Of a stretch of DNA of 52,238 nt, positions 2,074 to 20,200 are shown piece by piece (the first letter of the stretch is position 1; each line of letters starts with the position of its first letter). A model generated the notes under the pieces. The model was not told the origin of the DNA, ran no database searches, and saw nothing but the letters and a program-made list of their open reading frames with translations. The DNA is from Verrucomicrobiota bacterium (lineage in GTDB: Bacteria > Verrucomicrobiota > Kiritimatiellia > CAIKKV01 > CAITUY01), in the NCBI GenBank assembly GCA_011391785.1, contig JAABPW010000325.1, forward strand, positions 1-52,238. The letters run 5' to 3'. The position numbers and the translations under genes were made by a program.

Positions 2074-3609
2074 ATGATGAACAAGATCCCGCACTTCGAC
2101 TCTTCGGATAATCCGCCGCCGATTTTACGGCAGTTCTCCCTGTTGCGGGCGGCCTTCTGGCCGATCTTCATCCTGGGAATCCTGCTGTTTATTCCCCTCT
2201 TCACCTGGTTCTTCTGCCGAATCGAGCCGGGTAGCGGCGAAATTGCCATCCTGATCCACAAAACCGGCGAAGACCTGCCCTCGGGCCAGCTCCTGGCCGA
2301 ATCCCCAAAACAAAAGGGGATTCAACTTGAGGTGCTTGCGGAAGGGCGATTTTTCCGCAACCCCCTGTTCTGGGACTGGCAAATGGCCCAGATCACGGAC
2401 ATCCCCGCAGGCAAGCTGGGCGTGGTCACCCGTCTCTACGGGAAGAACCTTCCCGCCAACCAGATCATCGCCGGAAAAGGCGAGAAAGGGATCCTCGCCG
2501 ACATCCTGAGCCCCGGCAAGCACCGGCTCAACCCCTACGCCTTCCGCGTCGACCTGGCCGATGCCATCACCATCCGCCCGGGACATGTCGGGGTCGTGAC
2601 GTCGCTGAATGGCGAAGATGTCCTGAGCGGCACATCCACCAACAAACCCAACGGCTTCCTGGTTGAAAAATCGATGAAGGGGATCATCTCCGATGTCCTG
2701 GACTCAGGAACCTACTATCTGAACCCCTATCTCTTCAGCGTGGCCGAGGTCAACCTCCGAAGCCAGCGGTTCGAGATGAGCGGACTGGATGCCATCACCT
2801 TCCTGACCATGGATGGGTTCACCGTATCCGTTGAAGGTACCATCGAGTTCGCCCTGCAGGGTGACAAGGCGGCGCTCCTGACCCACCGGGTCGGCGATAT
2901 AAACGACATCATCAAGAAAGTGATCCTGCCCCGCGCCCGCGGCTTCAGCCGCATAGAGGGCAGCAAGCATCCCGCCACCACGTTCATCGTCGGCGAGACC
3001 CGGCAGCAGTTCCAGAAAGACCTCGAAGCACACCTGCACACCACCTGCGAAAAATGGGGCGTTTCCATCCGGTCGGTGCTGATCCGCAACATCACCCCGC
3101 CCGAGGAAATCGCCAGCATCATCCGGGACCGTGAAGTCGCGGTCCAGGAAAGCAAGCGCTACGACATGGAAATCGGACAGGCCAAATCAAAGGCCGAACT
3201 CGTGAAGCAGGAGATGCTGGCCAAGCAGAGTAGCGAGAAGGTGGAAGCCGACACCGCCCGCATCCGCGCCGTGATCAATGCCACACAGGAACAGACCGTG
3301 CGCGTCGTCCAGGCCAACCGGGAACTGGAGGTGGCCAAGATCGAGAATGATGCCGCCATCGCCCAGGCCAAGGCCGTCATGTACAAGGCGGAAGCCGAAG
3401 CCGCCGTCGTGAACATGCAGAACGTGGCCGAGGCGTCCGTCTTCGCCAACCAGGTCCAGGCCTTCAGCAACGGCATGAACTACTCTCGCTATACTTTCTA
3501 CAAGAAAGTCGGTCCGCGCATCCAGTCCATCCTCACCACCGATCAGGGTGATGGGCTCGGCGCACTGTTCAACCCCTATCTTCCCCAGGCGCCCAAGGAG
3601 GTCAAATAA
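2074..3609 (+). CDS. Membrane-anchored SPFH/Band 7 protein with three N-terminal repeats
   Basis: N-terminal TM helix; repeats of type PGxxGVVTxxxGxxLPxGxxxAxxGxKGIxxDVLxPGxxxxNPxxF; SPFH core; Ala/Glu-rich coiled coil. Confidence 0.88.
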   Translation: MMNKIPHFDSSDNPPPILRQFSLLRAAFWPIFILGILLFIPLFTWFFCRIEPGSGEIAILIHKTGEDLPSGQLLAESPKQKGIQLEVLAEGRFFRNPLFWDWQMAQITDIPAGKLGVVTRLYGKNLPANQIIAGKGEKGILADILSPGKHRLNPYAFRVDLADAITIRPGHVGVVTSLNGEDVLSGTSTNKPNGFLVEKSMKGIISDVLDSGTYYLNPYLFSVAEVNLRSQRFEMSGLDAITFLTMDGFTVSVEGTIEFALQGDKAALLTHRVGDINDIIKKVILPRARGFSRIEGSKHPATTFIVGETRQQFQKDLEAHLHTTCEKWGVSIRSVLIRNITPPEEIASIIRDREVAVQESKRYDMEIGQAKSKAELVKQEMLAKQSSEKVEADTARIRAVINATQEQTVRVVQANRELEVAKIENDAAIAQAKAVMYKAEAEAAVVNMQNVAEASVFANQVQAFSNGMNYSRYTFYKKVGPRIQSILTTDQGDGLGALFNPYLPQAPKEVK

Positions 3610-5282
3610 TGAATTCGCTTAAATCCGTTATCATTGGTTCCATCGTACTCGTTCTCCTCGCCATCTTCACCTGGGAATGGGGCTTTTGCCGTTTTTATGT
3701 TGAGCCGGACCAGATGGCGATCCTCATCGCCAGAATCGGCACCCCCCTGCCGCCGGGGGAAATCCTGGCGAAGAAGGGACAAATGGGCATTCAGGAGGAG
3801 GTTCTGGGCGAGGGTCGCCATTTCAGGAACCCCTTCGAATTTGACCATCAGATCATGCCCGTGATCAACATCCCGCCCGGCAAAGTCGGCGTGGTCACCG
3901 CCAAGGTTGGAGCTGAATTGCCACAGGGCGAATTCCTCGCCAATGATGGCCAGAAGGGTGTTTCCCGGCGCGTGCTGGGCCCTGGAAAATACCGCATCAA
4001 CCCCATTGGCTATGAGGTTCAGATCGAGGACGCCGTGGCGATTCCCATCGGCTATGTCGGCCTCATCACCTCGCTATCCGGAACCCAGGCCCCTCAAGGC
4101 GCCTTCGCCAAGCCCGGAGAAAAAGGCGTCCGATCAGATATTCTCCAGCCCGGCCTGTATTATGTGAACCCGAAGGAATTCCAGATCAACGTCCTGGAAA
4201 TCGGCGTCAACCAGGTATCCCTGTTGGGCCGGGAAGGCAGCACCGTCATTACGAAGGGCAAAATTGAAGGGCAGAATGCCGCCATGGAAGCCCTTGAGGG
4301 GAACCTGCTCAAGCAACAGCAGGCGAAGCGACGTGACTATTACCAGCAGATGGATGCCGACACCCAGCAGCGGACAGCCAGCCAGCCTCCAGCCAAACGT
4401 CCCGCCACACAGCAACGTGACACCGACAACGTGCATGTCCTCAATGAGTTCGTGTCCTTCCCCTCGCGTGACGGTTTTCTTATCAGCCTCGACATGACCC
4501 TTGAATACGAATTTCTCCCCGAAAGCATTGCCTGGCTTTACCGGAGCTACGGGGATCTTCCCGCCGTGGTCGACAAGATTATCATGCCGCAGATCCTCTC
4601 CATCACCCGCAACAAGGGCTCTGAATACCGCGCCAAGGACTTCATCCTCGGCGAGGGCCGCGAGAAGTTCCAGAACGATATGACGGAGGCGCTATCCAAG
4701 ACCATGGCCGAGAAAAAGATTATCACCCACAATGCCCTTATCCGTCATGTGGATGTCCCCATGCAGATTCTTGACCCCATCCAGAAGGCCAGCATCGCCA
4801 CGGAACAGAACCTGACCAACATCGAGCGGCAGAACACGGCGCGGAAGCAGGCTGAACTGAACAGCAACCAGTCGCTGATCGAACAGCGCCGTGCCCAGGT
4901 CGCCCAGGAGACCCTGAAGCTCAAGGCGGAGATTGCCGCCGACCAGGACAAGCAGGTGGCCGAGATTCAAGCCGGAACGGTCCAGCAGATTGCCTTGATT
5001 GACAAAAACACCGCCGAAGTCCGGGCCAACAAGACCCGCACCCTCGGGAAAGCCGCCGCCGATGCCATGAAACTTGTCGAAAGCGAACGGGCCCGCGGGT
5101 CACAGATGAAAACCCAGGCCTTTGGCGACCCCATCGCCTACAGCCTCTATGAATTCGCCGGCAGCCTCCGCCCGGACCTGATGATCAACATCCTGCACTC
5201 CGGCCAGGGAACCCTCTGGACCGACCTCGAAAAAGCCAATCTCGGGGAGCTGGGCGGCGCGTCTCTGCTGAACAAGAAGTAA
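3609..5282 (+). CDS. Second membrane-anchored SPFH/Band 7 protein, paralogue of upstream gene
   Basis: Start overlaps upstream stop (TAATG); same three-repeat N-terminus, Q-rich insert, SPFH and coiled coil. Confidence 0.88.
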   Translation: MNSLKSVIIGSIVLVLLAIFTWEWGFCRFYVEPDQMAILIARIGTPLPPGEILAKKGQMGIQEEVLGEGRHFRNPFEFDHQIMPVINIPPGKVGVVTAKVGAELPQGEFLANDGQKGVSRRVLGPGKYRINPIGYEVQIEDAVAIPIGYVGLITSLSGTQAPQGAFAKPGEKGVRSDILQPGLYYVNPKEFQINVLEIGVNQVSLLGREGSTVITKGKIEGQNAAMEALEGNLLKQQQAKRRDYYQQMDADTQQRTASQPPAKRPATQQRDTDNVHVLNEFVSFPSRDGFLISLDMTLEYEFLPESIAWLYRSYGDLPAVVDKIIMPQILSITRNKGSEYRAKDFILGEGREKFQNDMTEALSKTMAEKKIITHNALIRHVDVPMQILDPIQKASIATEQNLTNIERQNTARKQAELNSNQSLIEQRRAQVAQETLKLKAEIAADQDKQVAEIQAGTVQQIALIDKNTAEVRANKTRTLGKAAADAMKLVESERARGSQMKTQAFGDPIAYSLYEFAGSLRPDLMINILHSGQGTLWTDLEKANLGELGGASLLNKK

Positions 5283-5345: not shown

Positions 5346-7742
5346 ATGGGCTTTTTCAAGAAACATCGTTACGCGGGCTATCTGCTGGCCGCGGCCATCC
5401 TGCTGGCCGCGGCGGTTGCCATCTACCCGTACGACACCGCCATCTACCAGATGCTCCGGACCTTCTCCCACCGCGTCGGAAAGATTCATATCGTCCAGGA
5501 GATGTTGAATCTGGTCCGTCCCTTCGGAAAAGGGGATGTGGTCATTCTGATCGTGACCGGACTCGCCATTGCCGGCGCACGCCGGAAAGCGGCCCATATC
5601 CTGATCGCCCTGCTGGTGGTAACAGTCCTCATCTGGCCGTTTAAAATCGGCATCGCCCGGGAACGTCCCGGTTTCACCAACAAGCATTCCTTCCCCAGCG
5701 GTGATGTCGCAACCGCCGCCGCCTTCTGTGTCCCCCTCATGACCGCATCCCCATGGACGGCCCCTCTGGCGGTCGTCATCACAGGGGGGGTTGCCACCGG
5801 CCGCGTGTATGACGGACGGCACTTCCCCAGCGACGTACTCGCCGGTGCCGCCTTCGGGATTCTCAGTAGCGCCCTCGCCCTCGCCATCCTGCGGAGACGC
5901 CCCTGGCAGCCAAAACGAGTCTGGTTCCTCGCCGTAGCAGGACTCATCGTGGCCTTCTCCCTGCTGAACCTCACCTGGGCCCGCGCCACACCCTTTGTGG
6001 TCGACTTCCTCCGCGTCTGGGGCCCGCCCGGCGCATTCCTTCTGATCGCCAGCCTGATTCCCGTCTGGCAGCGAAGAAAAAAACAAGCCTTCGGCATTCG
6101 GAGTTCACGGCTTCTCTTCCCCCTGCTCTTCGCCGTTTACCTTTCCCTCACCACGGCCTCCACCTTGTGGGACCGTGACGAACCGCGTTTTTCGCGCGCC
6201 ACCGTTGAAATGGTGGAGTCCGGAAATTATCTTTACCCGACGTTCAACGGCTCGCTTCGCCCGGACAAGCCCATCCTGATCTACTGGCTTATGTCCGTAC
6301 CCGTCCGCCTTCTGGGTGTCTCCGAACTCTCCTGCCGCCTCGTGGCCCCAATCGCCACCCTTCTGGCGGCCCTGCTGGCGGCGTGGATCGCCTACCGCCT
6401 GGGAGGCAGGCAAGCCGGACTGCTGGCGGGATTGTGCATGATGCTTACTCCCTTGATGGCCGTCAGCGGAACCGCCGCAACAACCGATGCGCTCCTGCTG
6501 GCCTGCATCAGCGGCGCCATTTTCGCCTTCCTGCTGTCCTGGCTGGACGGATTCCGGATCTGGCACATTTTACTGATGATAGCGTCACTCGCTGGCGCCA
6601 TGCTGACCAAGGGACCGGTGGGACTGGTTGTCCCGCTCCTGGTCATCGCCAGCATCATGATCTTCGTCCGGACCGGGGCGATCCGCCCCCTTCCCTACAC
6701 AGGCTGGCTCCTGTTCGCCGTAGCCTCCTCCACGATCCTGTTCCTGGCATGGGGACTCCCCGCCAATGCCGCCACAAACGGAAAATTCCTTCAGATGGGA
6801 ATCGGGAAGCATGTGGTCAGCCGCTCCCTCACCGCCATGGAGAGCCACGGGGGAAAGAATTTCTTTTTTTATTTTTATTACCTGCCGGTGCTGCTCCTGA
6901 CGTTTTTCCCCTGGACGCTGTATTTGCCGCGACTTTTTGCCCGGAAGAATTCTCCCTCCCCCGGCAACATGACCCTCCCAGCGGCCACGGTCGGCCGCCT
7001 GCTCCTTTGCTGGGTGATCCCTGTTGTCGTCCTCATGAGCCTTGTCGCCACCAAGCTGCCGCATTACATCCTGCCCGCCTGGCCCGCCTTGGCGGTTGCG
7101 ACGGCACTGGGAATCCAGCGCGCCAGCCGTGACGGCAAGGAAGGCAACCGTTCCGTTGCGGCGAAAACCGGCCTCCTCCTGTTTCTGGTTGTTGGCAGCG
7201 CCCTCGGGCTCGGGCTCATCATTGCCCCCTGGTTTCTCCCGCTGTTCGGCGCGCGCATTCCCGCAACAGGCGTCGGCCTGATTTTCCTGGCCATGGTCAT
7301 CCTTGCCTGGCGGCAGTACCGGATCGCCCGGCATGAGGCCGTTGCGGCCATCCTCATGGCCGGCATGATCGCCGTCCTGATGTCGGCTTCACTCCTGCTC
7401 CTTCCCGCCCTTGAAAAACATAAGCCCGCGCCGTTTATCGCGGAAGTAATCCTGAACCGTTCGGATTCGTCCGTGCCTGTGACCACCTGCGGGTTCGGTG
7501 AGCCGAGCCTGAACTTCTACATCGGGCGGAGCCCGATCATGGCCATAGAGACTGACGCGCTTCCCGCCTGGGCCGCCGCCCCCGGGAAAGGAATCCTGGT
7601 AATCACGGAATTGAAGAGAAGAGGCCAGCGATGCCTCGATGACTCCCCGGCGATTGATACGCTGGATATCATTCCCGGCTTCAACTACTCTCAGGGAAAA
7701 TGGGTCCGGGTTCATATCCTGACCAGGGATAATGCACCATGA
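5346..7742 (+). CDS. Fusion protein: PAP2-family phosphatase domain + ArnT/PMT-like GT83/GT39 glycosyltransferase
   Basis: PAP2 motifs KIGIARERP, SFPSGD, GRVYDGRHFPSD; then WDRDEPRFSRATVEMVESGNYLYPTFNG..RPDKPILIYWL typical of ArnT-like proteins. Confidence 0.88.
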   Translation: MGFFKKHRYAGYLLAAAILLAAAVAIYPYDTAIYQMLRTFSHRVGKIHIVQEMLNLVRPFGKGDVVILIVTGLAIAGARRKAAHILIALLVVTVLIWPFKIGIARERPGFTNKHSFPSGDVATAAAFCVPLMTASPWTAPLAVVITGGVATGRVYDGRHFPSDVLAGAAFGILSSALALAILRRRPWQPKRVWFLAVAGLIVAFSLLNLTWARATPFVVDFLRVWGPPGAFLLIASLIPVWQRRKKQAFGIRSSRLLFPLLFAVYLSLTTASTLWDRDEPRFSRATVEMVESGNYLYPTFNGSLRPDKPILIYWLMSVPVRLLGVSELSCRLVAPIATLLAALLAAWIAYRLGGRQAGLLAGLCMMLTPLMAVSGTAATTDALLLACISGAIFAFLLSWLDGFRIWHILLMIASLAGAMLTKGPVGLVVPLLVIASIMIFVRTGAIRPLPYTGWLLFAVASSTILFLAWGLPANAATNGKFLQMGIGKHVVSRSLTAMESHGGKNFFFYFYYLPVLLLTFFPWTLYLPRLFARKNSPSPGNMTLPAATVGRLLLCWVIPVVVLMSLVATKLPHYILPAWPALAVATALGIQRASRDGKEGNRSVAAKTGLLLFLVVGSALGLGLIIAPWFLPLFGARIPATGVGLIFLAMVILAWRQYRIARHEAVAAILMAGMIAVLMSASLLLLPALEKHKPAPFIAEVILNRSDSSVPVTTCGFGEPSLNFYIGRSPIMAIETDALPAWAAAPGKGILVITELKRRGQRCLDDSPAIDTLDIIPGFNYSQGKWVRVHILTRDNAP

Positions 7743-8575
7743 GCGAAGAAAACGACGAGCGGTATGAGGATCTCCCGAGTGCTGAAGGCCGGACTCCCGT
7801 AGGCTCCCCGACGGGCTTCGTGCCTGCCACACCTCTTGGCGCCAGGCCCCCCGGGCCGGATGAAGAACCGGATCCCGTCCCGATCGAGCTGGAGATCGAG
7901 GTTGCGGAATCCGCAGGCAAATCCGAAAGAAAATTTTTATTCATGGCGCTCGGCATCGTCTGCTGCATTGCCATCGTCCACTATACCCCGCTCGAGCAAC
8001 TCACCAATGACCAGAACTGGAAGCAGCAGGTCCAAGCACTCGGGATCTGGGCGTACGCCCTCTTTTTCCTGGTTAGCACCGGCTTGATCGCCTTGGGCAT
8101 CCCCCGCATGTTCCTGTGCGGACTGGCTGGCGCCCTGTTCGGATTCATCTGGGGATTCATCATTGGACAGATCTCCGCCCTGTTTGGATCCTATGCCACC
8201 TTCTGTTTTGCCCGTCTGGGTGGGCGGGATTGGGTGATGAAACGCATTGAAAACAAACAGCGGCTCCGGAATCTGCTCAAGAAGCCATCCACCTTCACCA
8301 TTGTCCTGGTACGCCAGCTTCCCATTGCCGGAATTGTCCCCAACTTGATACTGGGGTTGACGCCCGTGAAACACCGGTATTTCCTGCTGGGTTCCTTTTT
8401 GGGCTACCTTCCAAGCTCAGCCCTGGTCGCCGCCATGGGAAGCAGTCTGGGTAAAGGGTTCAGCCGTGAAACCGTGGCTCATTCCATAAGCCAGATCGGT
8501 CTGGCCATGCTCGGCCTTGGCGCCATTTCCTGGCTGGTCTGGACGTTGAAGAAGAAGCTCGCCCAGCGTCACTAA
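7739..8575 (+). CDS. TVP38/TMEM64 (VTT/DedA-like) family membrane protein
   Basis: ATGA overlap with upstream gene; GLIALGIPRMFLCGLAGALFGFIWGFIIGQISALFGSYATFCFARLGGRDW and FTIVLVRQLPIAGIVPNLILGLTPVKHRYFLLGSFLGYLP. Confidence 0.85.
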   Translation: MSEENDERYEDLPSAEGRTPVGSPTGFVPATPLGARPPGPDEEPDPVPIELEIEVAESAGKSERKFLFMALGIVCCIAIVHYTPLEQLTNDQNWKQQVQALGIWAYALFFLVSTGLIALGIPRMFLCGLAGALFGFIWGFIIGQISALFGSYATFCFARLGGRDWVMKRIENKQRLRNLLKKPSTFTIVLVRQLPIAGIVPNLILGLTPVKHRYFLLGSFLGYLPSSALVAAMGSSLGKGFSRETVAHSISQIGLAMLGLGAISWLVWTLKKKLAQRH

Positions 8576-8700: not shown

Positions 8701-9816
8701 CTATTTCAAACGCCAGGTGAGCCAGCCGCCGATTCCCAGGAAGGTCAGGTTGGGCATCCAGCCGGCCAGCCAGGGCGCGAGAATCTCCCGCTTACCCAGG
8801 ATCATGCCCCCCTGCACCAGGAAATAATAGCCGAACAGGGCCACCACCCCGAAGGCGACACTGCGCATGGCCGGTTGCCGTGCCCCTCCTGCCGTGGCTG
8901 GCAGGCCCAGCAGGATCAATACCAGACACGCCCAAGGCCAGGCCACCCGGCAATGAATATCCACCAGGCGCTTTGACAGCCAGGGGCCGGTAGCATGCTG
9001 ACGGGTTCGGATGGAACGGATCATATCGCTGGTTGCCATCAAATCGGTGTCCTTGAGCTCATTCTCAAAATCTTCAGGCCGCTCGACATAATCGGGCATT
9101 TCAACCGGACGCTCCGCCACTTCACTCACGGGGCCGACCGGGTCGCTGCGGTCGTCGAAATCACGCCTTTGAAGCCCGTAGAACCACCAGGCTCCGTCCA
9201 ACCACTCGGCCCGGTCCGCGGTAATTTCCATGGCCAGCGATCCATTGGGCCGCTCGTGCAGCACCCTCACCCCCTTCACCCGGCTGGGAGTACGCACATC
9301 CATTTCCTTGATCACCCATTGCCGGCGCGCCTTTCCGGCATAATAAATATAATCCCTCACCACGAAGGAGGAATCCTTTGAACGCTTCAGCACCTGCTTG
9401 GTGTATTGATTGATCCAGCGCGTCGCCTGGGGCCCCAGGGTTTCCTGTACCACGGCGCCGAACAGGCTGGCGCATAGCCCGACGGCCAAAAGGGGCACCA
9501 TCATCCGCCGCTGGCTCACCCCGCTGGCGCTCATCGCCGTGAGCTCATTGTGGCGGGCGAACATGGTGAGGGTATACAGCGTGGCCAACAACAGGACAAT
9601 CGGAAGCACCACCACAATGAAGGGGACAAATCCGTTCACCTTGAAAAGGTAATACCCGTAATAGATCAGGATATCCGTCCACGCCGCCTTCACTTCCATG
9701 AAATCGTCAAAGCGATCGAACAGATCCAGCACGATGAACAGCAGACTGAACGCCGCCATCACATACCCGAAGGGAATCAGGTACTGCTTCAATATGTATT
9801 TATCGATAATCTTCAT
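8701..9816 (-). CDS. LptF/LptG-family lipopolysaccharide export permease
   Basis: N-terminal MKIIDKYILKQYLIPFGYVMAAFSLLFIVLDLFDRFDDF and LptF/G topology. Confidence 0.9.
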   Translation of the reverse strand: MKIIDKYILKQYLIPFGYVMAAFSLLFIVLDLFDRFDDFMEVKAAWTDILIYYGYYLFKVNGFVPFIVVVLPIVLLLATLYTLTMFARHNELTAMSASGVSQRRMMVPLLAVGLCASLFGAVVQETLGPQATRWINQYTKQVLKRSKDSSFVVRDYIYYAGKARRQWVIKEMDVRTPSRVKGVRVLHERPNGSLAMEITADRAEWLDGAWWFYGLQRRDFDDRSDPVGPVSEVAERPVEMPDYVERPEDFENELKDTDLMATSDMIRSIRTRQHATGPWLSKRLVDIHCRVAWPWACLVLILLGLPATAGGARQPAMRSVAFGVVALFGYYFLVQGGMILGKREILAPWLAGWMPNLTFLGIGGWLTWRLK

Positions 9817-10038: not shown

Positions 10039-13000
10039 TTACTGGACTCGAATGCGGTAAAATGCAGGGCTGATCCCTTTTGCCGTAATGTCGGTTGCCG
10101 TATTCATCGGGGCCACCGCCGCAACATTGGAGAAAACAGTTGTATTGAATGTTCCTGTCAGCAGGTTGGTTTCCCGTTGCACGGAGTAAGTGTGATCCGC
10201 CACGCTGGACCACCGAACGATCATTCCGTTTGTCGAGCCGGGCAGCGGGGTGATGCTGATGAGCTCCAGTCGAGATGCGGCGTTTGTCGGATCGGTTCCA
10301 GCCTGATACTCGCTTGAGTTGATGAATCCATCGGCATCGTTATCGCTGTTCGTCACCAGCCCGGTCATTGTGCGTGCGTAGTCCCATTCCCACCAATCCG
10401 GCAGGCCATCGGCATCCGAGTCCCAAACGTGGGGTATGAGTTCATGGGCGCCTATATCAACCCGCCCGTTCAACAGGCGCGGTTTACCCTCCCGATCGGT
10501 CCCTGTGCTCATCCACGCCTGATTTGTACCCGCGTCGATGCAGGGGGAATTGGTGGCCAGACGAACATCGCCGGCGGCGAGATCGCGGAACTTCGGAGCA
10601 TTCGTAATGTTACCGATGCCACCGGGATCGGGAGCGATATTGCACGCTCCAAAGGTGTCGCTGCCGCTGGTGAAGTAGTCGGGTGTCCCCGGCGGCGTGT
10701 TGTGGAAAAGGATGCAATTCAGCAGGCTACCGCCGCCGCTACTGGTCAGTCCGCTACCCGAATTGATGATGTAATCGACGTGATTCGTGGCAAGGGTGCA
10801 GCTTTCCAGACGGAATCCGGCCCCGTTCGCATAGATCCCGCCGCCGCGCATGGCCGCGCTATTCCGCGTAATCACGCAGTTGAAAGACGTGACGGCACCC
10901 ACCGTGTAGAGTCCCGCTCCATATTGCGCGGTATTGTCCCGCAGAGTACACGCCGCGATCGCACCGCCATTGAGATACCCGCCTCCGCCATTCTGGGCCG
11001 TGTTGCCACTGATCGTGCAGTTGGTTGCTAATCCAGCTCCATCAATGTACAGGCCGCCACCCTGCACCGCGCCGTTGCCCACGACCAAGCAGTTGACCAA
11101 ATGGCCGAGGTTTAGATAAGCGCCGCCCCCGCCGATCAACCCGTTATAGCCATTCGTCAGGGTGAGATCCCGCACAACGCCCCCGCCCGTGACCTTCACG
11201 CAACGGTGGGCATAACTGCCATTAAGGACGGTCATGCCGGGGTCACCGCTGCCCCGCAGGGTCACCGGCAGGGTGATGAGTACCTCGCCGGCGGGACTGT
11301 GTATGCCGGCACAGACCAGAATGGTGTCATTGCCGCGGGCGGCATCAACGGCTGCTTGAATCTCGTGGGCGGCGCCGGACGGGTCCGCGTAGGGCCAGAC
11401 GTTGCCGGCTGCCGGATTGACGTGGTGCACCGGAGTCGTCTCGCTGGCACCCATGTCCACGCGCCCCTCCGACACCCGGGGAAATCCATCTACATCCACG
11501 GCGGCAAGCATCCAGTCCTGATTGGTGCCGGCATTAATCGCCGGTGAGTTGGTGGCAAGCCAGATCTCCCCGCCTGCGCCATGGATCAAAACCGGTTCAT
11601 TGGTGATGTTGCCATTGCCGCCGGGATTAACGGGCGTGCAGGAGAAACTCATCGGTGTGTCACGGAAATCAGCATCCTCCGGTGCCGTATTGAAATAGAT
11701 GATGGAGTTGGTGGCGGAGCCCAGAGTGATTCCGCCAGCGTAGGACTCGGACACGTTACTGACAACCGTGCAATTGCCCAGAATGGCCCCGTACGCACCG
11801 CCGCCCTGCCCAACCGAGACATTGCGCGTCACGCGACAGTCGACCAACACGCCATTTGCGGAGCCCCCTCCCGATCGGCTCCAGTTATTGTCAATGACCG
11901 ACTCATACGCCCAGGCATTATTCAGGCCACCCCCCTGCCGCTCGCCGCGGTTATCCGCGATGAGGCACCGGCGATAGACGCCCCCGGCGGCGCCGCCCCC
12001 GATATCGGAATGATTTCCGGTAATGATCCCGCGTTCCAGGGTGCAGTCACAGACACCTCCTCCATAGGCAAATTCACCGGCGGCCGTGTTGTTGCTGACG
12101 ATGGCATCGTACAGGGTCATCCGGCAGACTCCGCCGCCGCTCCCCCCTTCGGCAGTGTTTCCGGTCACCAGAAGGCTGTACGCGGTCCCGCTGTAGAAGT
12201 ACGCACCGCAGATCCCGCCCCCGTCAAGGTGGGCCAGGCAATCGGACACAATGCAGTTGGTCAGCGTTCCGCCCGAGGTATACACACCGCCCCCGGAGCG
12301 GTCGAGGGACACGTCGCCAGCCGTCAATGTGGCGCCGGACAGCACCGTAAATCCGTCGAGCACGGCCCCGCTTCCCAAGTACACGCCCCTCACGGCCGTC
12401 GCCCCAAGCGGACGCTGGCCGACGATCGTGGTCCGGGCGGGCCCATTCACGCTGCGCAGCGTGATGGCGTTCGTCACGCAAACCCGGTTCGTGAGGCTGG
12501 CGCCGGGAGTCGCACCACCGCCGGCAGAATAGACGCCATTCGAGACCAGTACCGTTTGCCCTTCCCAGGCGGCATCGACGGCATCCTGAATCGTCGGGGC
12601 GGCCGTGGCCCATGACCCGAAAGGCCAGGCCGGCACCGCGTTCGTGGCGACGTAATGGACGGGCACCAATTCATAAGCGCCCACATCGACGCGGTCACCG
12701 AAGATGCGGGGCGCACCGAGCACATCACGGGCCGTGGCCATCCACCCCAAGTTCGTGCCGCGATCCACACAAGGCGAATTACCCCACGGCCGCTCATCAC
12801 CCGCCAGGGGATTGCGCAGGCCGGGGTTATTCGTGAAGTTGCCCGGTCCCGCGGGCATGGGAACCGTACAGCACCAGGCCCAGTCGATGTTCCCGGCTCT
12901 GTTCGCGTAGTCGGGGTTGGCCGCCGAATTATCATACACGATGCAGTTGAGCAGGAACGCATTCGTCTCCGTGGCGCCGAGCTGGCTTCCACAGATCCCG

Positions 13001-15717
13001 CCGCCGACACCCGCCGACCAATTACTGACCACCGTGCAGTTCACTAGCGTTGCATAACAAGCACCGCCTCCCAGGATACCCGCCACGTTGCCATACAGAA
13101 CACTGGATACGACCTGCCCCGTATAGACACCGCCGCCATTCACAGCGACATTTCCGATCACCCTGCAGTTCGTGAGGCTTGATTCATAGCATCCGCCACC
13201 ATGTTGCGTGGCGCTGTTCCCCTGGACAAGGCAACGCAGCAGCGAGGAGGAAAAGGTCGCGCCACCATAGCTGGCGGTGTTACCCATAAGCGTGCAGTCG
13301 GTCAGCGTTGAGTAATCTCCTGCGCCTCCGGCCCGGGTGGCGGCATGGTTGTTCAGCAGGAGGCAGTTGTTGAGGGTACTGGAAGCGGCGCCCCCTTCTT
13401 CAGAACTTGATGAATTGCCCACCAGCAGGCAGTTTGTCAGCGTGCAGGCGTACACTCCGCCCGCCCAGCCCGACATGTTATTGGTGATTATGCAATGATC
13501 CAGCGAGGAGTCCTGAGCGCCACCATACATCGAGGCGGTATTGTCGGCAAGGGTGCTGCTGAGCAGGGAACAATACCGGGCCCCGCCCGCCCACCACGCG
13601 GAATTGCCCCGGATCGTGCAGTCCCGCACGGTGGCATTGGCGCAGCCGCCTCCGTAACCGAATGCCGAGTTAGAGATGATCTGGCAAGCCGTCAGGGTGC
13701 CACCGTACACGCCACCGCCATTGATGGCATCGCTCTGGCGCAGGACGCAATTAGTCAGGCGGCTGCCGGAAGCAAAAACCCCGCCGCCGCAGATATCGTC
13801 CTCGGGCAGGGATCCTCCCTGGCGGGTGCAGCCGTTGGACAACGTGAACCCGTAGAGCCGGGCATCATTGGTCAGGTAGGCGCAGCGGATGGCATTGTCA
13901 CCACGGGGCCCCATCCCCCCGATCACGGTCACGGCAGGCCCGTTGACGCTTCGCACCGAGATGCGCTGACCCACGAACACCCGGTTGGTCAGGAACGATC
14001 CGGGCGCCACGGCGCTGCCGTTGGTGTAGACACCGTTCGTCACGATCACATGGTCGTAGGGGATGCACACGTTCACGGCCGCCTGGATCGTCCGGGCCGC
14101 CATGGCCCAGTTCGTATAGGGGGGTGTATTGCCTCCCGTGAGGGATACATAGCGGACCGTTCCACCGGGCTCGGTCGTGCGAGTAACCTGCACCGTGCAG
14201 CTGCCGACAACCCCGTAGATATTGGTCCCGGCAACCACAATCGTGTTGTTGGTCACCGCCAGGGGAACCTCGGGTATCACCCAGGGCGTGACCGCGGCAA
14301 AGGAACCGCCTGCCTGCCCTGCGGCATTCGTCCACCACATGGTGCCCACCACAAACACATTGTTCGATCCGCTTACGCTCACCGCTTCGTCATCATTATT
14401 AAAGGTGGCCCCGTTGACCGGATTGGTGATGGTGACCACCGGGTCCCAACTCTCATAGGCCCCCATGTCCACGGTACCGTTACCGAGCCGCGGCCTGCCG
14501 TCCAAGTCAACGGCAGTGGACATCCATCCCTGGTTCACGCCAAGATCAATGCAGGGCGAATCGGGCCGGAGCCGAAAGTTTCGCTGCCCCGGCGCGACCA
14601 GCCGGGGATCGGTGGAGAGGCATCCCGCCCCCCCTCCGATGCCGGCAAGCGGCGTCGTGCAGGAATACAGGAACGTTCCCCTGTACCAGTTGGGGCTGGC
14701 GGGCGCCTCATTGTGGTAAATAATGGAATTGGTGACCCCGTTTCCCGCTTCCAACCATACCCCGCCGCCCTTGTTCGCCCGGTTGCTCACGACAGTGCAG
14801 TTGAGGAGCGTGCCTCCGTTCACACCGCCCCCGTCGTCACCCGCCTGGTTCCCTGCAAAAAGACAGCCAATAAACACCCCGCCCCAGGCTCCTCCTCCAA
14901 TGTTTGTCGCGGCATTGTCAATAACCTGGCAGTCCCGCAATTCGCAACTGACTGTGCCGCCTCCGGCCCAGTCCACCCGATTACTTGTGATCAGGCACCG
15001 GGTAAGGGTTGACGCGTAAGCACCCCCACCATAGTGCGCTGAACATCCGCTGATGATGGAATCATAGGCGGTAGAGCTCTCGCCAATACCCCCGCCGCTG
15101 CTGGACGCACGGTTGCCGACAACAAAACAGTTGTACAGAGTGCACGAATAGGTTCCCCCGCCCCCAATGGCGGAGCTGTTTTCAATGCGGCAGTCATGGA
15201 GCTCACACTCCGTCGCTCCGCCACCGATGTCAGCACTGCACCCTGTGATCACACAGTTGGAGAGTATGGCTGAACCCCACGCGGTATCGCCACGCACCCC
15301 GCCGCCCAGTCCGCCGGTGGTCGTGAACCCGTTTGTGAGCGTAAATCCGTGAAGCTGTGCGCCCCACCCGAGGTACGCACACCGCACGGCGCTGGCACCC
15401 ATTGGCCCCTCCCCAACGATAAAGGTCACCTCAGGCCCCCCCGTGCTCCGAATCATAACCGCACCGAGGTGCGCAATCCGGTTTTCGCTGGCAACCTTGC
15501 TGGTGGCATAGACGCCGTTGGTGACGAGGACCGTGTCGCCCAAACCGGAGGCATCCAAGGCAGACTGGATGTCGTGAAACGCGTTGGTCCAGTCCGTGCC
15601 GGGGCCATCGCTCGGGCTACTGGCCCAGACGTGCAACGTTGCGGCAGACGCCGCGATCGGACTGGATAAAATCCCCCAGCAGCACCATCCCACCAAAGCA
15701 AGACGACATGATTTCAT
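10039..15717 (-). CDS. Very large secreted right-handed beta-helix repeat protein, with Ca-binding-type linker and C-terminal sorting-like domain
   Basis: ORF 10039-15837; ATG at 15717 has upstream GGAGAAG and gives signal peptide MKSCRLALVGWCCWGILSSPIAASA; four modules with GVY..RSVNGP..G..P.GA.A.R..YL..GA.L.GFTL.NG and RVD.GAYE; C-terminal DSDADGLPDWWE..DNDADGF. Confidence 0.9.
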   Translation of the reverse strand: MKSCRLALVGWCCWGILSSPIAASAATLHVWASSPSDGPGTDWTNAFHDIQSALDASGLGDTVLVTNGVYATSKVASENRIAHLGAVMIRSTGGPEVTFIVGEGPMGASAVRCAYLGWGAQLHGFTLTNGFTTTGGLGGGVRGDTAWGSAILSNCVITGCSADIGGGATECELHDCRIENSSAIGGGGTYSCTLYNCFVVGNRASSSGGGIGESSTAYDSIISGCSAHYGGGAYASTLTRCLITSNRVDWAGGGTVSCELRDCQVIDNAATNIGGGAWGGVFIGCLFAGNQAGDDGGGVNGGTLLNCTVVSNRANKGGGVWLEAGNGVTNSIIYHNEAPASPNWYRGTFLYSCTTPLAGIGGGAGCLSTDPRLVAPGQRNFRLRPDSPCIDLGVNQGWMSTAVDLDGRPRLGNGTVDMGAYESWDPVVTITNPVNGATFNNDDEAVSVSGSNNVFVVGTMWWTNAAGQAGGSFAAVTPWVIPEVPLAVTNNTIVVAGTNIYGVVGSCTVQVTRTTEPGGTVRYVSLTGGNTPPYTNWAMAARTIQAAVNVCIPYDHVIVTNGVYTNGSAVAPGSFLTNRVFVGQRISVRSVNGPAVTVIGGMGPRGDNAIRCAYLTNDARLYGFTLSNGCTRQGGSLPEDDICGGGVFASGSRLTNCVLRQSDAINGGGVYGGTLTACQIISNSAFGYGGGCANATVRDCTIRGNSAWWAGGARYCSLLSSTLADNTASMYGGAQDSSLDHCIITNNMSGWAGGVYACTLTNCLLVGNSSSSEEGGAASSTLNNCLLLNNHAATRAGGAGDYSTLTDCTLMGNTASYGGATFSSSLLRCLVQGNSATQHGGGCYESSLTNCRVIGNVAVNGGGVYTGQVVSSVLYGNVAGILGGGACYATLVNCTVVSNWSAGVGGGICGSQLGATETNAFLLNCIVYDNSAANPDYANRAGNIDWAWCCTVPMPAGPGNFTNNPGLRNPLAGDERPWGNSPCVDRGTNLGWMATARDVLGAPRIFGDRVDVGAYELVPVHYVATNAVPAWPFGSWATAAPTIQDAVDAAWEGQTVLVSNGVYSAGGGATPGASLTNRVCVTNAITLRSVNGPARTTIVGQRPLGATAVRGVYLGSGAVLDGFTVLSGATLTAGDVSLDRSGGGVYTSGGTLTNCIVSDCLAHLDGGGICGAYFYSGTAYSLLVTGNTAEGGSGGGVCRMTLYDAIVSNNTAAGEFAYGGGVCDCTLERGIITGNHSDIGGGAAGGVYRRCLIADNRGERQGGGLNNAWAYESVIDNNWSRSGGGSANGVLVDCRVTRNVSVGQGGGAYGAILGNCTVVSNVSESYAGGITLGSATNSIIYFNTAPEDADFRDTPMSFSCTPVNPGGNGNITNEPVLIHGAGGEIWLATNSPAINAGTNQDWMLAAVDVDGFPRVSEGRVDMGASETTPVHHVNPAAGNVWPYADPSGAAHEIQAAVDAARGNDTILVCAGIHSPAGEVLITLPVTLRGSGDPGMTVLNGSYAHRCVKVTGGGVVRDLTLTNGYNGLIGGGGAYLNLGHLVNCLVVGNGAVQGGGLYIDGAGLATNCTISGNTAQNGGGGYLNGGAIAACTLRDNTAQYGAGLYTVGAVTSFNCVITRNSAAMRGGGIYANGAGFRLESCTLATNHVDYIINSGSGLTSSGGGSLLNCILFHNTPPGTPDYFTSGSDTFGACNIAPDPGGIGNITNAPKFRDLAAGDVRLATNSPCIDAGTNQAWMSTGTDREGKPRLLNGRVDIGAHELIPHVWDSDADGLPDWWEWDYARTMTGLVTNSDNDADGFINSSEYQAGTDPTNAASRLELISITPLPGSTNGMIVRWSSVADHTYSVQRETNLLTGTFNTTVFSNVAAVAPMNTATDITAKGISPAFYRIRVQ

Positions 15718-15943
15718 AGTCACTTCTCCAGTTATAAGAATAGCCGCTACATCTACGCGAAGAGTATCAATGCAGAGGGGGTTGAACAAGTCTTTCCTGT
15801 AGGACCTGAACACCCCTTTTGCTTGATTTGCATGCACACTGCATAATTATCTTTCTTCAATTCTGAAAAACATCACACCTTCCCGGCCGAAATGAAAAAG
15901 CAAGATCACCGATGCAGAGACAGACCGGTCTCCCCGCGGTAGT

Positions 15944-16385: not shown

Positions 16386-16414
16386 TTTTGAGGGTGATTT
16401 GGCACGCTCACGCC

Positions 16415-19400
16415 ATGAAAACATTTCTCGTCGCGGTTCTGTCTCTCGTGTTCCTGACTGCGCCATATGTCCAGGCCGATGACATCAAGGTCTGGCCGGT
16501 TTTCTACCAGAATACCGATCCTGAAACCCACACTGCCCGGACGGAGTTCCTCTGGCCGTTGTACGTGCGGGAGACAACGTCGGCCTACACTGCAAACCAA
16601 TTCCTGAGCTTCCCCCAGTCCTTTCCGGAGGAGTATCCCCACCAATTCTATTTCCTCTGGCCGCTCAGCGGGCTCAGGACAGGCGCGGGGCATGACGCCT
16701 GGCTTTTCCCTCTGTTGTGGAGCGGTGCCGAGCAAGGGGGAAGTGATCATTACTTCGCCTTATTTCCCGCTTTCTATTACGGAAAGGACGGGAAGGCGAC
16801 TACCCTTAACATCGCCCTGTTGCAACACAATCATTGGGATGCGAAGGGGGCCGGCCATTATCTCTTTCCACTGTTCTGGAATTCATGGGAGTCGTGGGGT
16901 ACCAGTGCTGAGCGTTCTTTCGGACTCTTGCCTCTTTTCTGGATGAACAGGAGTCAAAACAACGACAGTAAGCACCAGTCCCGTTCGCGTTCCGGGGGCG
17001 CACTGCTCCTCAACTGGTGGAGCAGGCGGAGTGCGACCAATTCGACCGGCAATGGCATCAGTATTTCCGAGAGCGCCTCCGAAAATCTTTTCCCTGTTTT
17101 CCGCCGTGCCCGATCCTCGACGACATCATTCATATCCGGGGCCGGGGATCACTTCAGGGATTCCCTGTGGATCATTCCCTACTGGCAGTCGCATATAACC
17201 ATCACTAACAGTCATGAGACTGTTTTGGAATCCCGTCACCGGTTTTTTCCATTCTACTGGGACTGGAACGAGACGAGGGGTCGAAAAGGGGAGAGCGGAC
17301 GGGCTTTGCTCCCTCTCTGGTGGCATTCCGCCACTCTTGAAGGCGGTGAGTTGGCCGAGTCAGCCGATTTCCTTCTTCCCATCGGCGCCCACTTCTACAA
17401 GAAGGGCGAGTATGATACACGGAATATCCTGGGTCCCATGTTCAATCGAACGGAGAATACCCGGACCAAAACGGTGCGTTATGACGCCTTCTTTCCGTTT
17501 TTCTCACTCACGCGCGGGGAGTCTGAATCGGGTGGACATATTTTCCCGCTGGCGGGATGGAATACGGAGCGGGGCCGGCATGACAACCTCTGGTACGGCT
17601 TTCCACTGGGCTGGGATTGCGAGTCGCAGGAAGCCTTCGATTACCGGATGAGTCGTCCGCAATTCTTCGCCCTGCACGAGTTGGAGACCCGTCCGGCTGT
17701 GTCAGAAACCGATTGCCGCAAAGGCCCGCGTCGTACGGTTGCCTTCTACCCGTTCTTCTGGTCAAAAAGGCAGGCCGACGAACAGCATCACGGATTCCTC
17801 CCGTTCTATTGGCGCAACAGCCTGCGATACGGGCGGTCCCTCTGCGACCATACGGTTCTGCCGTTTCTTCTAGGTGATTACAGAACCGTGTATCGCGACG
17901 ACCTTCCCGTTTCTTCGCAACAGAACTGCCTTCTCTCCCTGATTTCAAACGGGCGGGGTCCCGACTCCCGAAATTGGCGACTCTTCCCGTTGTTTTCATA
18001 TGACCGGTCCAGTGGCTCGCTGGATTATTCGTCCTTCATCCTGCCCTTCTCCTATCACTCGTGGCGCGACCCCGAACGTCCCGATGGCGCCCGTTCATCC
18101 GAGTTATCGATTCCCTTCTCGTTCCTTCCGTTGTTCCGGAGCGCGTCCAGTCAAAGTGGATCGACGAATGGTACTCGGAAGAGCTGGTTTTTCCCGTTCT
18201 ACAAACGGGAGACTCTATCCGGATCGGAAGGGGATTTTTCCAAGCTCTCGATTCTTTGGCCGCTGTGGAACGGGGAATGGGTGAACGGGGAAACCCATAT
18301 CCGCGGGCTTGGTGGCGTAATGAACTACTATGAGCGGGATGCAGAAGGATTTGTCGAACAGCGCCTCCTTTACCGGGTCTTTACCCGGCGAACACGCAGT
18401 TGGTTCAACGAGCACGAATTCATGCCCCTGTTCGCCCGATCATCACGCGAAGATGGCTCATCCTCGTGGGGATTTCTGGGCGGGCTGCTTGGTGGCGGGA
18501 GCGACGGCACCCGGAACTACCTGCGTCTGCTGTATCTGAAGATTCCCACCCGCGCCGTTCCTCCGGTTACGGCGGAGACGCTTGCCGCCGGCCAGAAGCG
18601 GCATGCCGAACTGGCCCTCCATTACCTGCAACATGACCGACATGACCGGGCCGCAATCGAGTTTACTCTGGCGGGGAACGCCTATGCCGACGATGCGGCT
18701 TTCCAGCTTGCCGCCGGGGAGGCCTACATGAAGGCCCAGCCCGATGCGCTGGGCAAGGAATTGCGATCGAGTCTACCCAAGTCGCTCGATCCGATCTATG
18801 GGCGGTCGAACAGCGGTAATCTCAACAGTATCCAGCGGAACCTGCAGACCCTCGCCATCAGTCGTTTCGAGGAGGCCATCAGGCTGGGGGCCGACAAGCC
18901 TTCGACCCTGGTGAAACTGGCGGAAGCCTACACCGCGCTCGGAATCGATGCCGAGGCGCTGAAGCGCCTGGAGGAATCGGATCGGCTCCATCCCGCTTTC
19001 GCCACGGCCATGATGCGATTGAATACGGCAAAAGCCATCTGGAGTAGCTTCATCCACTCCGCGAAAACCAACGCGCTGGGGGGGCAGGCGGCCGAGGACT
19101 CGGTGAACTCCACCTTGAAGGAATTGAAAGCCCGTTATCCACGCTCACCGTCCCTCGCGCTTGCGGAAGGCGCATGGATCATGAGCGAAGCGAATCCGAA
19201 AAGCTATTGGTCTAATGGGGATGACTTCGGGTATCTCTATGATAACTGGGAGTATTCCCTCGTGAACGACGTGTTTTCGCCCGGGAACCGCAAGCGGCTC
19301 GAGCTCTACCGGCAAGGGGCGGAGTGGACGCCAGGGGTCGAGGAGGTAGCGTGGTTGAGTACCCGCCAGCCGCGCCCGCGTCCCCGTGGACTCTGGATGT

Positions 19401-20200
19401 CCCTTGTCCCTCCGGGCAGGCCCGCCCTTCAGCCCGGTGCCCAGTGTGCCCGCAAGGCGGCCATGATCCTGAATCAGCAATTTTCGACGCTGATTTCCGA
19501 GAAGCGCTATGCCGAGGCCGAGGCATTTCGCGGGCCAATCTCCCGGATCCTCCCGAAGGTTTGCAGCCTGTGTCCTGCCGCCGTCTCCGGCAAGGGCCAA
19601 TATGCCACCAGTCAGGAGCCTACCTCTCAATTCCTCTGGCATCTTTATGGCCTTTACATCACGGCTACCAATCGGCCGCTGGACTACATCGCGGCGGCCG
19701 AGGAACTGGCTCCCACGCTTTGCCGGCACCAGCAGCCGGCGGTCTCGAACGCCCTGGAGTCCGTTCGCCTGGAGCAGCAATACATCAAGACCTGGCATAT
19801 CGCCGGCGAGGTTGCAGGGAAGCGGGTCAGCCGGGATTACTCGGGCAAATTCTTCGAGCGCTATGTGGATCTGGACGCGATTCTCGGTCAGCCTGACGGC
19901 TGTACGGTCGCGGCGGAGTGTTCCGTGGTCTCGCCTGACGAACGCCGGGTGCTCCTGCGCCTCGGTTTCGACCACACACTCACAGCCGAGCTGAACGGGC
20001 GTGTTGTGTTCGGGCCCAAGTCCAGAAAGATTGCGGTGAGGGATGAGTACCGGGTGCCCCTCACGCTGAAGGCCGGGACGAACCGCTTGAATCTGAAGGT
20101 GACCGACGACACGTTAGCCTATGGTTTCTTTGCCCGGTTGAGTTCTGAAAGCGGGGAGTTCATGAAGGACCTTGTGATTGACGCGGTGCATCAGCCTTGA
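16415..20200 (+). CDS. Large secreted protein: numerous aromatic 'LFPLFW' repeats, TPR-like region, C-terminal beta-sandwich-like domain; function unknown
   Basis: ORF 16388-20200; likely start at M10 gives signal peptide MKTFLVAVLSLVFLTAPYVQA; repeats FLWPLY, YLFPLFW, GLLPLFW, RFFPFYW, ALLPLWW, GFLPFYW, RLFPLF, WFFPFY, ILWPLW. Confidence 0.85.
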   Translation: MKTFLVAVLSLVFLTAPYVQADDIKVWPVFYQNTDPETHTARTEFLWPLYVRETTSAYTANQFLSFPQSFPEEYPHQFYFLWPLSGLRTGAGHDAWLFPLLWSGAEQGGSDHYFALFPAFYYGKDGKATTLNIALLQHNHWDAKGAGHYLFPLFWNSWESWGTSAERSFGLLPLFWMNRSQNNDSKHQSRSRSGGALLLNWWSRRSATNSTGNGISISESASENLFPVFRRARSSTTSFISGAGDHFRDSLWIIPYWQSHITITNSHETVLESRHRFFPFYWDWNETRGRKGESGRALLPLWWHSATLEGGELAESADFLLPIGAHFYKKGEYDTRNILGPMFNRTENTRTKTVRYDAFFPFFSLTRGESESGGHIFPLAGWNTERGRHDNLWYGFPLGWDCESQEAFDYRMSRPQFFALHELETRPAVSETDCRKGPRRTVAFYPFFWSKRQADEQHHGFLPFYWRNSLRYGRSLCDHTVLPFLLGDYRTVYRDDLPVSSQQNCLLSLISNGRGPDSRNWRLFPLFSYDRSSGSLDYSSFILPFSYHSWRDPERPDGARSSELSIPFSFLPLFRSASSQSGSTNGTRKSWFFPFYKRETLSGSEGDFSKLSILWPLWNGEWVNGETHIRGLGGVMNYYERDAEGFVEQRLLYRVFTRRTRSWFNEHEFMPLFARSSREDGSSSWGFLGGLLGGGSDGTRNYLRLLYLKIPTRAVPPVTAETLAAGQKRHAELALHYLQHDRHDRAAIEFTLAGNAYADDAAFQLAAGEAYMKAQPDALGKELRSSLPKSLDPIYGRSNSGNLNSIQRNLQTLAISRFEEAIRLGADKPSTLVKLAEAYTALGIDAEALKRLEESDRLHPAFATAMMRLNTAKAIWSSFIHSAKTNALGGQAAEDSVNSTLKELKARYPRSPSLALAEGAWIMSEANPKSYWSNGDDFGYLYDNWEYSLVNDVFSPGNRKRLELYRQGAEWTPGVEEVAWLSTRQPRPRPRGLWMSLVPPGRPALQPGAQCARKAAMILNQQFSTLISEKRYAEAEAFRGPISRILPKVCSLCPAAVSGKGQYATSQEPTSQFLWHLYGLYITATNRPLDYIAAAEELAPTLCRHQQPAVSNALESVRLEQQYIKTWHIAGEVAGKRVSRDYSGKFFERYVDLDAILGQPDGCTVAAECSVVSPDERRVLLRLGFDHTLTAELNGRVVFGPKSRKIAVRDEYRVPLTLKAGTNRLNLKVTDDTLAYGFFARLSSESGEFMKDLVIDAVHQP

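What the first reader, a model, noticed from the sequence alone, without database searches (positions are those of the whole stretch)
2074..5282. Tandem SPFH pair with three N-terminal beta-type repeats: possible membrane-anchored, vault-like cage
Seen: both proteins have one N-terminal TM helix, then three ~55-60 aa repeats (for example IPAGKLGVVTRLYGKNLPANQIIAGKGEKGILADILSPGKHRLNPYAF and IPPGKVGVVTAKVGAELPQGEFLANDGQKGVSRRVLGPGKYRINPIGY), then an SPFH domain and a long Ala/Glu/Gln-rich helix. The genes overlap (TAATG), so equimolar heteromeric assembly is plausible. Established: major vault protein is built as tandem ~55 aa repeats, an SPFH-like shoulder and a long cap helix; HflK/HflC and flotillins form membrane cages. 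Inference: this two-gene system could form a taller, membrane-tethered cage combining both themes.
Basis: partly seen in the sequence, partly recalled or inferred. Interest (0 to 1): 0.72.

Follow-up and report, generated by a model that had tools for sequence, protein, structure and literature searches.

The report
Paired SPFH cage proteins, tandem repeats
Two overlapping bacterial genes encode sister membrane-anchored proteins of the stomatin/prohibitin/HflK-C (SPFH) kind in which the small first SPFH sub-domain is copied three times in a row; the closest structural match to this layout is the protein of the eukaryotic vault particle, so they probably build a taller-than-usual cage on the membrane.

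Summary
Genes A (2074-3609) and B (3609-5282, TAATG overlap) each encode one N-terminal TM helix, three homologous ~57-63 aa beta repeats, an SPFH core and a ~130 aa Ala/Glu/Gln-rich helix. All 43 A and 43 B homologues examined have exactly three repeats; repeat, SPFH and helix lengths are nearly invariant at ~55% identity; all 44 loci examined keep A next to B, with no other conserved neighbour.

One correction: repeat 3 is the SPFH domain's own first sub-domain (SPFH1). The novelty is two extra SPFH1-like copies between membrane and SPFH core. Single-gene cousins with three or four repeats exist in the same phylum, and a four-repeat one in Rhizobium, annotated 'flotillin'.

A Foldseek search with the B model, whose repeats fold, ranks major vault protein first (E 8.7e-11, ~570 columns); with the A model, whose repeats did not fold, vault falls to rank 40. 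Sequence comparison shows no homology to vault. I found no published description of such repeats; a recent paper calls MVP repeats unique to the vault.

Verdict: new variant of the SPFH cage family, probably a periplasm-facing heteromeric cage raised on stacked SPFH1 rings. The vault analogy is supported structurally; homology is unproven; cellular function is inferred only.

The parts
2074..3609 (+). Gene A, 511 aa: TM + 3 SPFH1-like repeats + SPFH2 + long helix
   Evidence: ORF; Band_7 E 2e-26 at residues 166-372; orthologues in about 60 of 289 genomes of the phylum
2149..2214 (+). A: N-terminal transmembrane helix (about residues 26-47)
   Evidence: Hydropathy, only one such segment; net charge before TM +2.4, after -0.5, N-in in 98% of homologues
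2215..2400 (+). A repeat 1 (residues 48-109)
   Evidence: groups with B repeat 1 in the repeat tree, support 0.99
2401..2571 (+).
   Evidence: closest to B repeat 2 (99.9%, E 2e-32)
2572..2757 (+). A repeat 3 (residues 167-228) = SPFH1 sub-domain of the Band_7 domain
   Evidence: Band_7 alignment begins at residue 166, profile position 2
2758..3129 (+). A: SPFH2 sub-domain (residues 229-352)
   Evidence: hhalign to SPFH2 of canonical SPFH proteins 96%, E 1e-9; 124 aa in 43/43 homologues
3130..3537 (+). A: long Ala/Glu/Gln-rich helix (residues 353-488)
   Evidence: AF2 helices 344-463 and 467-488; 136 aa in 43/43 homologues
3609..5282 (+). Gene B, 557 aa: TM + 3 repeats + linker + SPFH2 + long helix; start overlaps the stop of A by 1 nt
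   Evidence: ORF; Band_7 E 6e-15; adjacent to A in 44/44 loci
3612..3686 (+). B: N-terminal transmembrane helix (residues 2-26)
   Evidence: AF2 helix 2-26, pLDDT about 77-88; hydropathy
3687..3869 (+). B repeat 1 (residues 27-87)
   Evidence: AF2 strands 28-31, 35-41, 60-66, 69-72, 78-84
3870..4040 (+).
   Evidence: AF2 strands 92-98, 117-123, 126-128, 135-145
4041..4217 (+). B repeat 3 (residues 145-203) = SPFH1
   Evidence: AF2 strands 149-155, 171-179, 182-185, 191-197
4218..4424 (+). B: variable Gln-rich helical linker inserted between SPFH1 and SPFH2 (residues 204-272)
   Evidence: 57-123 aa among homologues, 32% mean identity; low pLDDT helix 217-256
4425..4787 (+). B: SPFH2 sub-domain (residues 273-393)
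   Evidence: Pfam Band_7 271-415; 121 aa in all 43
4788..5168 (+). B: long Ala/Gln/Glu-rich helix (residues 394-520)
   Evidence: AF2 helices 385-505 and 508-520; 127-128 aa in all 43

Best explanation
A and B are the two subunits of a membrane-anchored SPFH cage. Each is held in the inner membrane by one N-terminal helix (N-in, rest periplasmic, as in HflK/HflC). Outside the membrane each chain runs through three stacked SPFH1 beta modules, then SPFH2, then the long helix that closes the dome. A and B alternate in a ring; each repeat level forms one beta ring, so the wall between membrane and dome is three SPFH1 rings high instead of one. The cage then encloses a larger or taller patch of envelope space for membrane proteins or lipids, possibly with FtsH as client protease. 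Shown: the anatomy, the triplication before the A/B duplication, the constant pairing, the fixed lengths, the vault-like predicted fold of B. Inferred: hetero-ring, periplasmic side, height, cargo, FtsH.
For: Three repeats in 43/43 A and 43/43 B; 6-7 repeat matches in 58 of 59 pair genomes, the exception lying at a contig edge. Adjacent same-strand pair in 44/44 loci, stop/start overlap of 4 nt in 30 and 1 nt in 6. A and B distances correlate at r = 0.95 (shared descent alone predicts much of this). Repeat, SPFH2 and helix lengths vary by at most 1-4 residues at about 55% mean identity, while N-terminus, linker and tails vary freely: what registry between neighbours in a ring would demand. Foldseek with folded repeats: MVP first (E 8.7e-11), then prohibitin, erlin, HflK/C, stomatin, QmcA, flotillin, all cage or ring formers; with unfolded repeats MVP drops to rank 40 and about 287 columns. 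Single TM with positive-inside N-in topology for A 98%, for B only 60%. FtsH is present in the genome.
Against: No complex was modelled and no copy number is known. Both AF2 models have low pTM (0.32-0.33) from a 7-row alignment; repeats fold only in B, and TM-scores to MVP are low (about 0.2) because the models are extended and their long-range arrangement is not trustworthy. Topology of B is weakly supported. No conserved neighbour points to a client. FtsH is near-universal, so its presence proves nothing.
Confidence: 0.68

Rival explanations
1. Cytoplasmic flotillin-like scaffold: same repeats and SPFH ring, but on the cytoplasmic face, organising membrane microdomains rather than enclosing periplasmic space.
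For: Single-gene repeat-bearing cousins are annotated as flotillins. One cousin lies immediately downstream of two TIR-domain genes, whose products are normally cytoplasmic. Charge bias for B is weak.
Against: A has a strong N-in charge bias (98% of homologues); a TM helix, not a re-entrant hairpin or acyl anchor, precedes repeat 1; no Pfam flotillin C-terminal model matches A or B.
Confidence: 0.2
2. The extra repeats are ligand- or partner-binding beta domains carried by an otherwise ordinary SPFH ring, not ring-forming levels of a taller wall.
For: Repeats 1 and 2 are as conserved as functional domains (57-66% identity). Prediction of B does not itself show lateral contacts.
Against: They are copies of SPFH1, which in known cages sits in the wall next to the membrane (PMC12624060); they lie between the membrane helix and the SPFH core, where a wall must pass; lengths are fixed; MVP provides a precedent for repeats forming a wall (PMC13347060).
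Confidence: 0.15
3. An HflK/HflC replacement: the pair is simply the lineage's HflKC and regulates FtsH, the extra repeats being a lineage decoration with no change of function.
For: Two-gene tandem SPFH with N-terminal TM, like hflK-hflC; weak hflK match; in several genomes, including this one, the pair are the only Band_7 proteins found; FtsH present.
Against: The hflK model scores 26 bits against a cut-off of 159; many genomes hold the pair together with several other SPFH proteins (G007 8 matches, G020 8, G012 6); genome G000 is only 86% complete and carries NfeD genes near a contig start, so a further SPFH gene may be missing from it.
Confidence: 0.25
4. A bacterial relative of the vault by common descent: MVP repeats R1-R9 descend from SPFH1 duplications of the kind seen here.
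For: Top Foldseek hit and repeat-dependence; same order of repeats, SPFH, helix; repeat number varies (3 and 4) across bacterial cousins, so growth by duplication happens.
Against: No sequence signal: profile against MVP scores no better than shuffled MVP, no PDB sequence hit for the repeat profile at E 10; MVP has no TM helix and closes through its N-termini (PMC13100048); SPFH1 duplication could easily have occurred twice.
Confidence: 0.3

Closest known systems
Major vault protein (vault particle, eukaryotes)
   Same: Tandem beta repeats, then SPFH (shoulder), then a long cap helix; best structural match of the B model
   Different: Nine repeats, about 890 aa, one gene, no TM helix, cytosolic 78-mer closed barrel; no sequence similarity or MVP Pfam match
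HflK/HflC (FtsH-associated SPFH cage, bacterial inner membrane)
   Same: Tandem two-gene SPFH pair, N-terminal TM, SPFH1-SPFH2-helix core, likely periplasmic; 24 alternating subunits in the known cage (PMC12048511, PMC12624060)
   Different: One SPFH1, no tandem copies; A reaches only 26 of the 159 bits needed for hflK, and B has no hflK match
Prohibitin 1/2 and Erlin 1/2
   Same: Two sister subunits, TM + SPFH1 + SPFH2 + coiled coil, membrane-bound dome (PMC12624060); Foldseek E about 1e-9
   Different: Single SPFH1
'Flotillin family' or 'SPFH domain-containing' proteins such as WP_064830263.1 of Rhizobium phaseoli
   Same: Same tandem SPFH1-like repeats before SPFH2 and helix
   Different: Single gene, four repeats; not paired with a sister gene at the one annotated Rhizobium locus inspected
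Twelve prokaryotic SPFH subfamilies of Hinderhofer et al. 2009 (PMC2636767)
   Same: Belongs somewhere in this superfamily; subfamilies 6-12 are undocumented, most with N-terminal TM
   Different: The held text mentions neither N-terminal repeats nor the vault; assignment to one of the twelve could not be tested

Membership tests
SPFH / Band 7 superfamily | Band_7 (PF01145) domain above the curated cut-off | tested here: met
   A 93.4 bits, B 56.3 bits against a cut-off of 23.6
SPFH / Band 7 superfamily | SPFH domain followed by a long alpha-helical segment | tested here: met
   AF2 helices 344-463 (A) and 385-505 (B)
SPFH / Band 7 superfamily | Assembly into a ring or cage on a membrane | not testable with these tools
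   Only single chains can be modelled
HflK/HflC | Match to the hflK (TIGR01933) or hflC equivalog model above cut-off | tested here: not met
   A 26.2 bits against 159.4; no hflC hit; B neither
HflK/HflC | Single SPFH1 sub-domain after the TM helix | tested here: not met
   Three in all 43 A and 43 B
HflK/HflC | Association with FtsH | not testable with these tools
   FtsH is in the genome, on another contig
Major vault protein | Match to an MVP/Vault Pfam model | tested here: not met
   No such family at E<=1 for A and B, or at E<=5 for three cousins; MVP_shoulder 0 of 278 genomes (positive control silent)
Major vault protein | Tandem beta repeats N-terminal to an SPFH domain and a long helix | tested here: met
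Major vault protein | No membrane anchor, nine repeats, closed two-half barrel | tested here: not met
   One TM helix and three repeats; barrel closure untested
Flotillin/reggie | Flotillin C-terminal family model in addition to Band_7 | tested here: not met
   Only Band_7 above cut-off in Pfam
Flotillin/reggie | Neighbouring NfeD gene (prokaryotic flotillins, SPFH2 subfamily) | tested here: not met
   No NfeD among the neighbours in the window; NfeD genes lie on another contig; no conserved neighbour in 44 loci

The most novel reading that the evidence does not exclude
Bacteria carry a family of membrane-anchored SPFH proteins whose wall grew by tandem duplication of SPFH1, and the eukaryotic vault arose from this architecture: vault-like walls are ancestral bacterial features, and the A/B pair is a two-component, membrane-tethered 'half vault'.
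Probability: 0.3. Interest if true: 0.87.

Novelty: new variant of a known kind. Interest (0 to 1): 0.62.

Why it matters
A recent vault paper states that the MVP repeats are unique to the vault and that other SPFH proteins make half-cages seated directly on the membrane. A conserved bacterial pair with exactly three SPFH1-like repeats, and single-gene cousins with three or four, shows how a higher SPFH wall could be built by repeat duplication. It makes the origin of the vault architecture testable in bacteria by cryo-EM, and it offers a natural two-component scaffold of tunable height.

Tried and rejected
Repeat profile against PDB sequences: no hits at E 10. Profile against human MVP and against an internal MVP repeat alignment: not above shuffled or reversed controls. 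MVP_shoulder in 278 genomes: none, but the tool's control also stayed silent, so absence is not proven. Viral contigs: no relatives. Gene A's AF2 model: repeats below pLDDT 50, so no structural claim rests on it; used as a control only. Conserved operon partner: none in 44 loci; neighbours are ferritin, HDAC, AraC regulator, M28 peptidase, lipid A acyltransferase, Na/Ca exchanger and others. PAP2-PMT, VTT and LptG genes downstream are shared only within the genus. A search centred on another phylum was not possible. Loci taken with the fetch from genomes were not sent to structure prediction because that tool's stated list does not include them. A terminator or operon boundary around the pair was not resolved.

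Full report
What is there. Gene A (2074-3609, 511 aa) and gene B (3609-5282, 557 aa) lie on the + strand and overlap in TAATG. Pfam finds Band_7/SPFH in both (A 166-372, E 2e-26; B 271-415, E 6e-15) and nothing else above cut-off. The window belongs to a 3.07 Mb, 86% complete assembly; one of the two closest relatives by gene A (80-81% identity) is titled 'PVC group bacterium'.

Are the repeats real? Yes. In the window alone every one of the 15 comparisons among the six repeats scores z = 8.9-27 against shuffles. Sub-profiles cut from 43 A and 43 B homologues match each other at 94.9-99.9% probability, while SPFH2 sub-profiles do not match the repeats (<5%). An HMM of the repeats finds exactly three copies in all 43 A and all 43 B proteins and none in shuffled copies. 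In a survey of 278 genomes of the phylum, 58 of 59 pair genomes have six or seven repeat matches; the exception, G148, has its A gene cut by a contig start.

What are the repeats? Copies of SPFH1, the first sub-domain of the SPFH domain. The Band_7 model begins where repeat 3 of A begins, and repeat 3 runs straight into SPFH2 in A, whose SPFH2 matches canonical SPFH proteins at 96%. The broad repeat profile aligns collinearly, in two weak local pieces, with canonical SPFH1: 'IPPGKVGVVTAKVGAEL' with 'VVPQRSAYVVERLGKYH' (not significant on its own), and 'VLGPGKYRINPIGYEV' with 'LDAGLHFLFPFIDAV' (50% probability). In B the TM plus repeat 1 also aligns with TM plus SPFH1 of canonical proteins (74%). 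So the architecture is TM - SPFH1 - SPFH1 - SPFH1 - SPFH2 - long helix. The homology to SPFH1 is modest by sequence, but its position is consistent for all six repeats.

How old is it? In the repeat tree each of the six repeat types is a clade, and repeat 1 of A groups with repeat 1 of B (support 0.99), repeat 3 with repeat 3 (0.74); the repeat 2 pairing is recovered with weak support. Triplication therefore most likely came before the A/B duplication. A and B are adjacent, on one strand, in all 44 loci read; 30 overlap by 4 nt and 6 by 1 nt, and in the other eight the mechanical start call, a frameshift or a gap obscures the junction. About 60 of 289 genomes of the phylum hold the pair, in many families. 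No third gene is conserved beside it.

Wider family. Twelve other genomes in the survey hold weaker matches; these and one more (G085), when read, proved to be single genes with three repeats (L121, L125, L127) or four (L122, L126, L128, L131-L133, L138; with larger inserts L123, L124, L129, L130) before SPFH2 and a helix. A four-repeat protein finds 68 plasmid records in Rhizobium, Streptomyces, Novosphingobium and Paraburkholderia; the Rhizobium copy, annotated 'flotillin family protein', has four repeats as well. Repeat number is thus fixed inside the pair but variable in the superfamily.

Structure. With a seven-row alignment, AF2 folds the first 200 residues of B at pLDDT about 63-88 into a TM helix and three beta modules (strands 28-84, 86-145, 149-197); the same job for A leaves the repeats below 50. 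Foldseek with B places major vault protein first (9r86, E 8.7e-11, 573 columns; several more MVP entries at 2e-10 to 5e-9), followed by prohibitin, erlin, HflK/C, stomatin, QmcA and flotillin. The A model is an accidental control: without folded repeats the order is erlin, HflK/C and stomatin, and MVP falls to rank 40 with about 287 columns. The repeats therefore appear to supply the vault match. Two cautions apply: TM-scores are about 0.2 because the overall arrangement of these extended models is unreliable, and sequence comparison gives no support for homology with MVP.

How it probably works. In known cages SPFH1 sits against the membrane, SPFH2 forms the wall and the helices the dome (PMC12624060; PMC12048511). 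In MVP the repeats form the wall of the barrel (PMC13347060). Inserting two more SPFH1 modules between the membrane helix and the SPFH core would raise the same dome on two more beta tiers. The near-perfect conservation of lengths (A: SPFH2 124 and helix 136 aa in all 43; B: SPFH2 121 and helix 127-128 aa; repeats within 1-4 aa), against freely varying termini and linker, is what lateral registry in a ring would enforce. The constant pair, as in HflK/C, prohibitin and erlin, suggests alternating A and B. Charge bias puts the bulk of A in the periplasm (98% of homologues) and B less clearly (60%). What the cage encloses is unknown; FtsH is present in the genome and is a reasonable but untested partner.

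Is it known? Hinderhofer et al. (PMC2636767) divide prokaryotic SPFH proteins into twelve subfamilies; the text mentions neither repeats of this kind nor the vault, though I could not test whether this family falls in one of them. The Pseudomonas aeruginosa SPFH survey does not mention repeats (PMC13086221). [quoted passage not shown] Searches of the open library for repeat-bearing SPFH proteins or vault-like bacterial SPFH proteins found none. Subscription papers are not covered, so absence of a report is not proven.

Verdict. Real, conserved, apparently undescribed, and of interest to vault and SPFH specialists; a new variant of the SPFH cage kind. It works like a small vault wall on a membrane, with moderate confidence; it is not shown to be a member of the vault family, and it fails the sequence tests for MVP and HflK.

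Noticed in passing
L142:2121-6123 (Streptomyces clavuligerus plasmid pF1D1A): An SPFH protein that matches the four-repeat cousin (its own repeat number was not counted) lies directly downstream of two TIR-domain genes on the same strand, an arrangement suggestive of a defence or signalling operon.
   Followed up: no
L141:3836-9824 (Rhizobium phaseoli plasmid): The four-repeat 'flotillin family protein' is followed by a 'DNA repair exonuclease' and a large 'AAA family ATPase', resembling an SbcD/SbcC-like pair by annotation only.
   Followed up: no
window 5346-7742: One ORF fuses a PAP2 phosphatase domain to a PMT_2 glycosyltransferase domain; with VTT (7739-8575) and LptG-like (8701-9816) genes it is shared next to the pair only within the genus.
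   Followed up: partly
window 20324-22648: MurC-MurB fusion (Mur ligase domains followed by FAD_binding_4 and MurB_C) in one ORF.
   Followed up: no
window 10039-15837 (-) and 16388-20200 (+): Two very long ORFs (1932 and 1270 aa) without any Pfam match at 1e-5.
   Followed up: no
window 2215-2217 and 3687-3689: A cysteine directly after the TM helix (residue 48 of A, 27 of B) is kept in 40 of 43 B and 26 of 43 A proteins, Trp replacing it in the other 17 A; possible inter-subunit disulfide or lipidation.
   Followed up: partly
L003:8432-8493: Gene B of this close relative is split into two ORFs (298 and 239 aa), probably an assembly frameshift.
   Followed up: no
G000:C186:156-810: Two NfeD-type matches lie near a contig start; a partner SPFH gene could lie off the contig, so 'only two Band_7 proteins' in this genome is not certain.
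   Followed up: no
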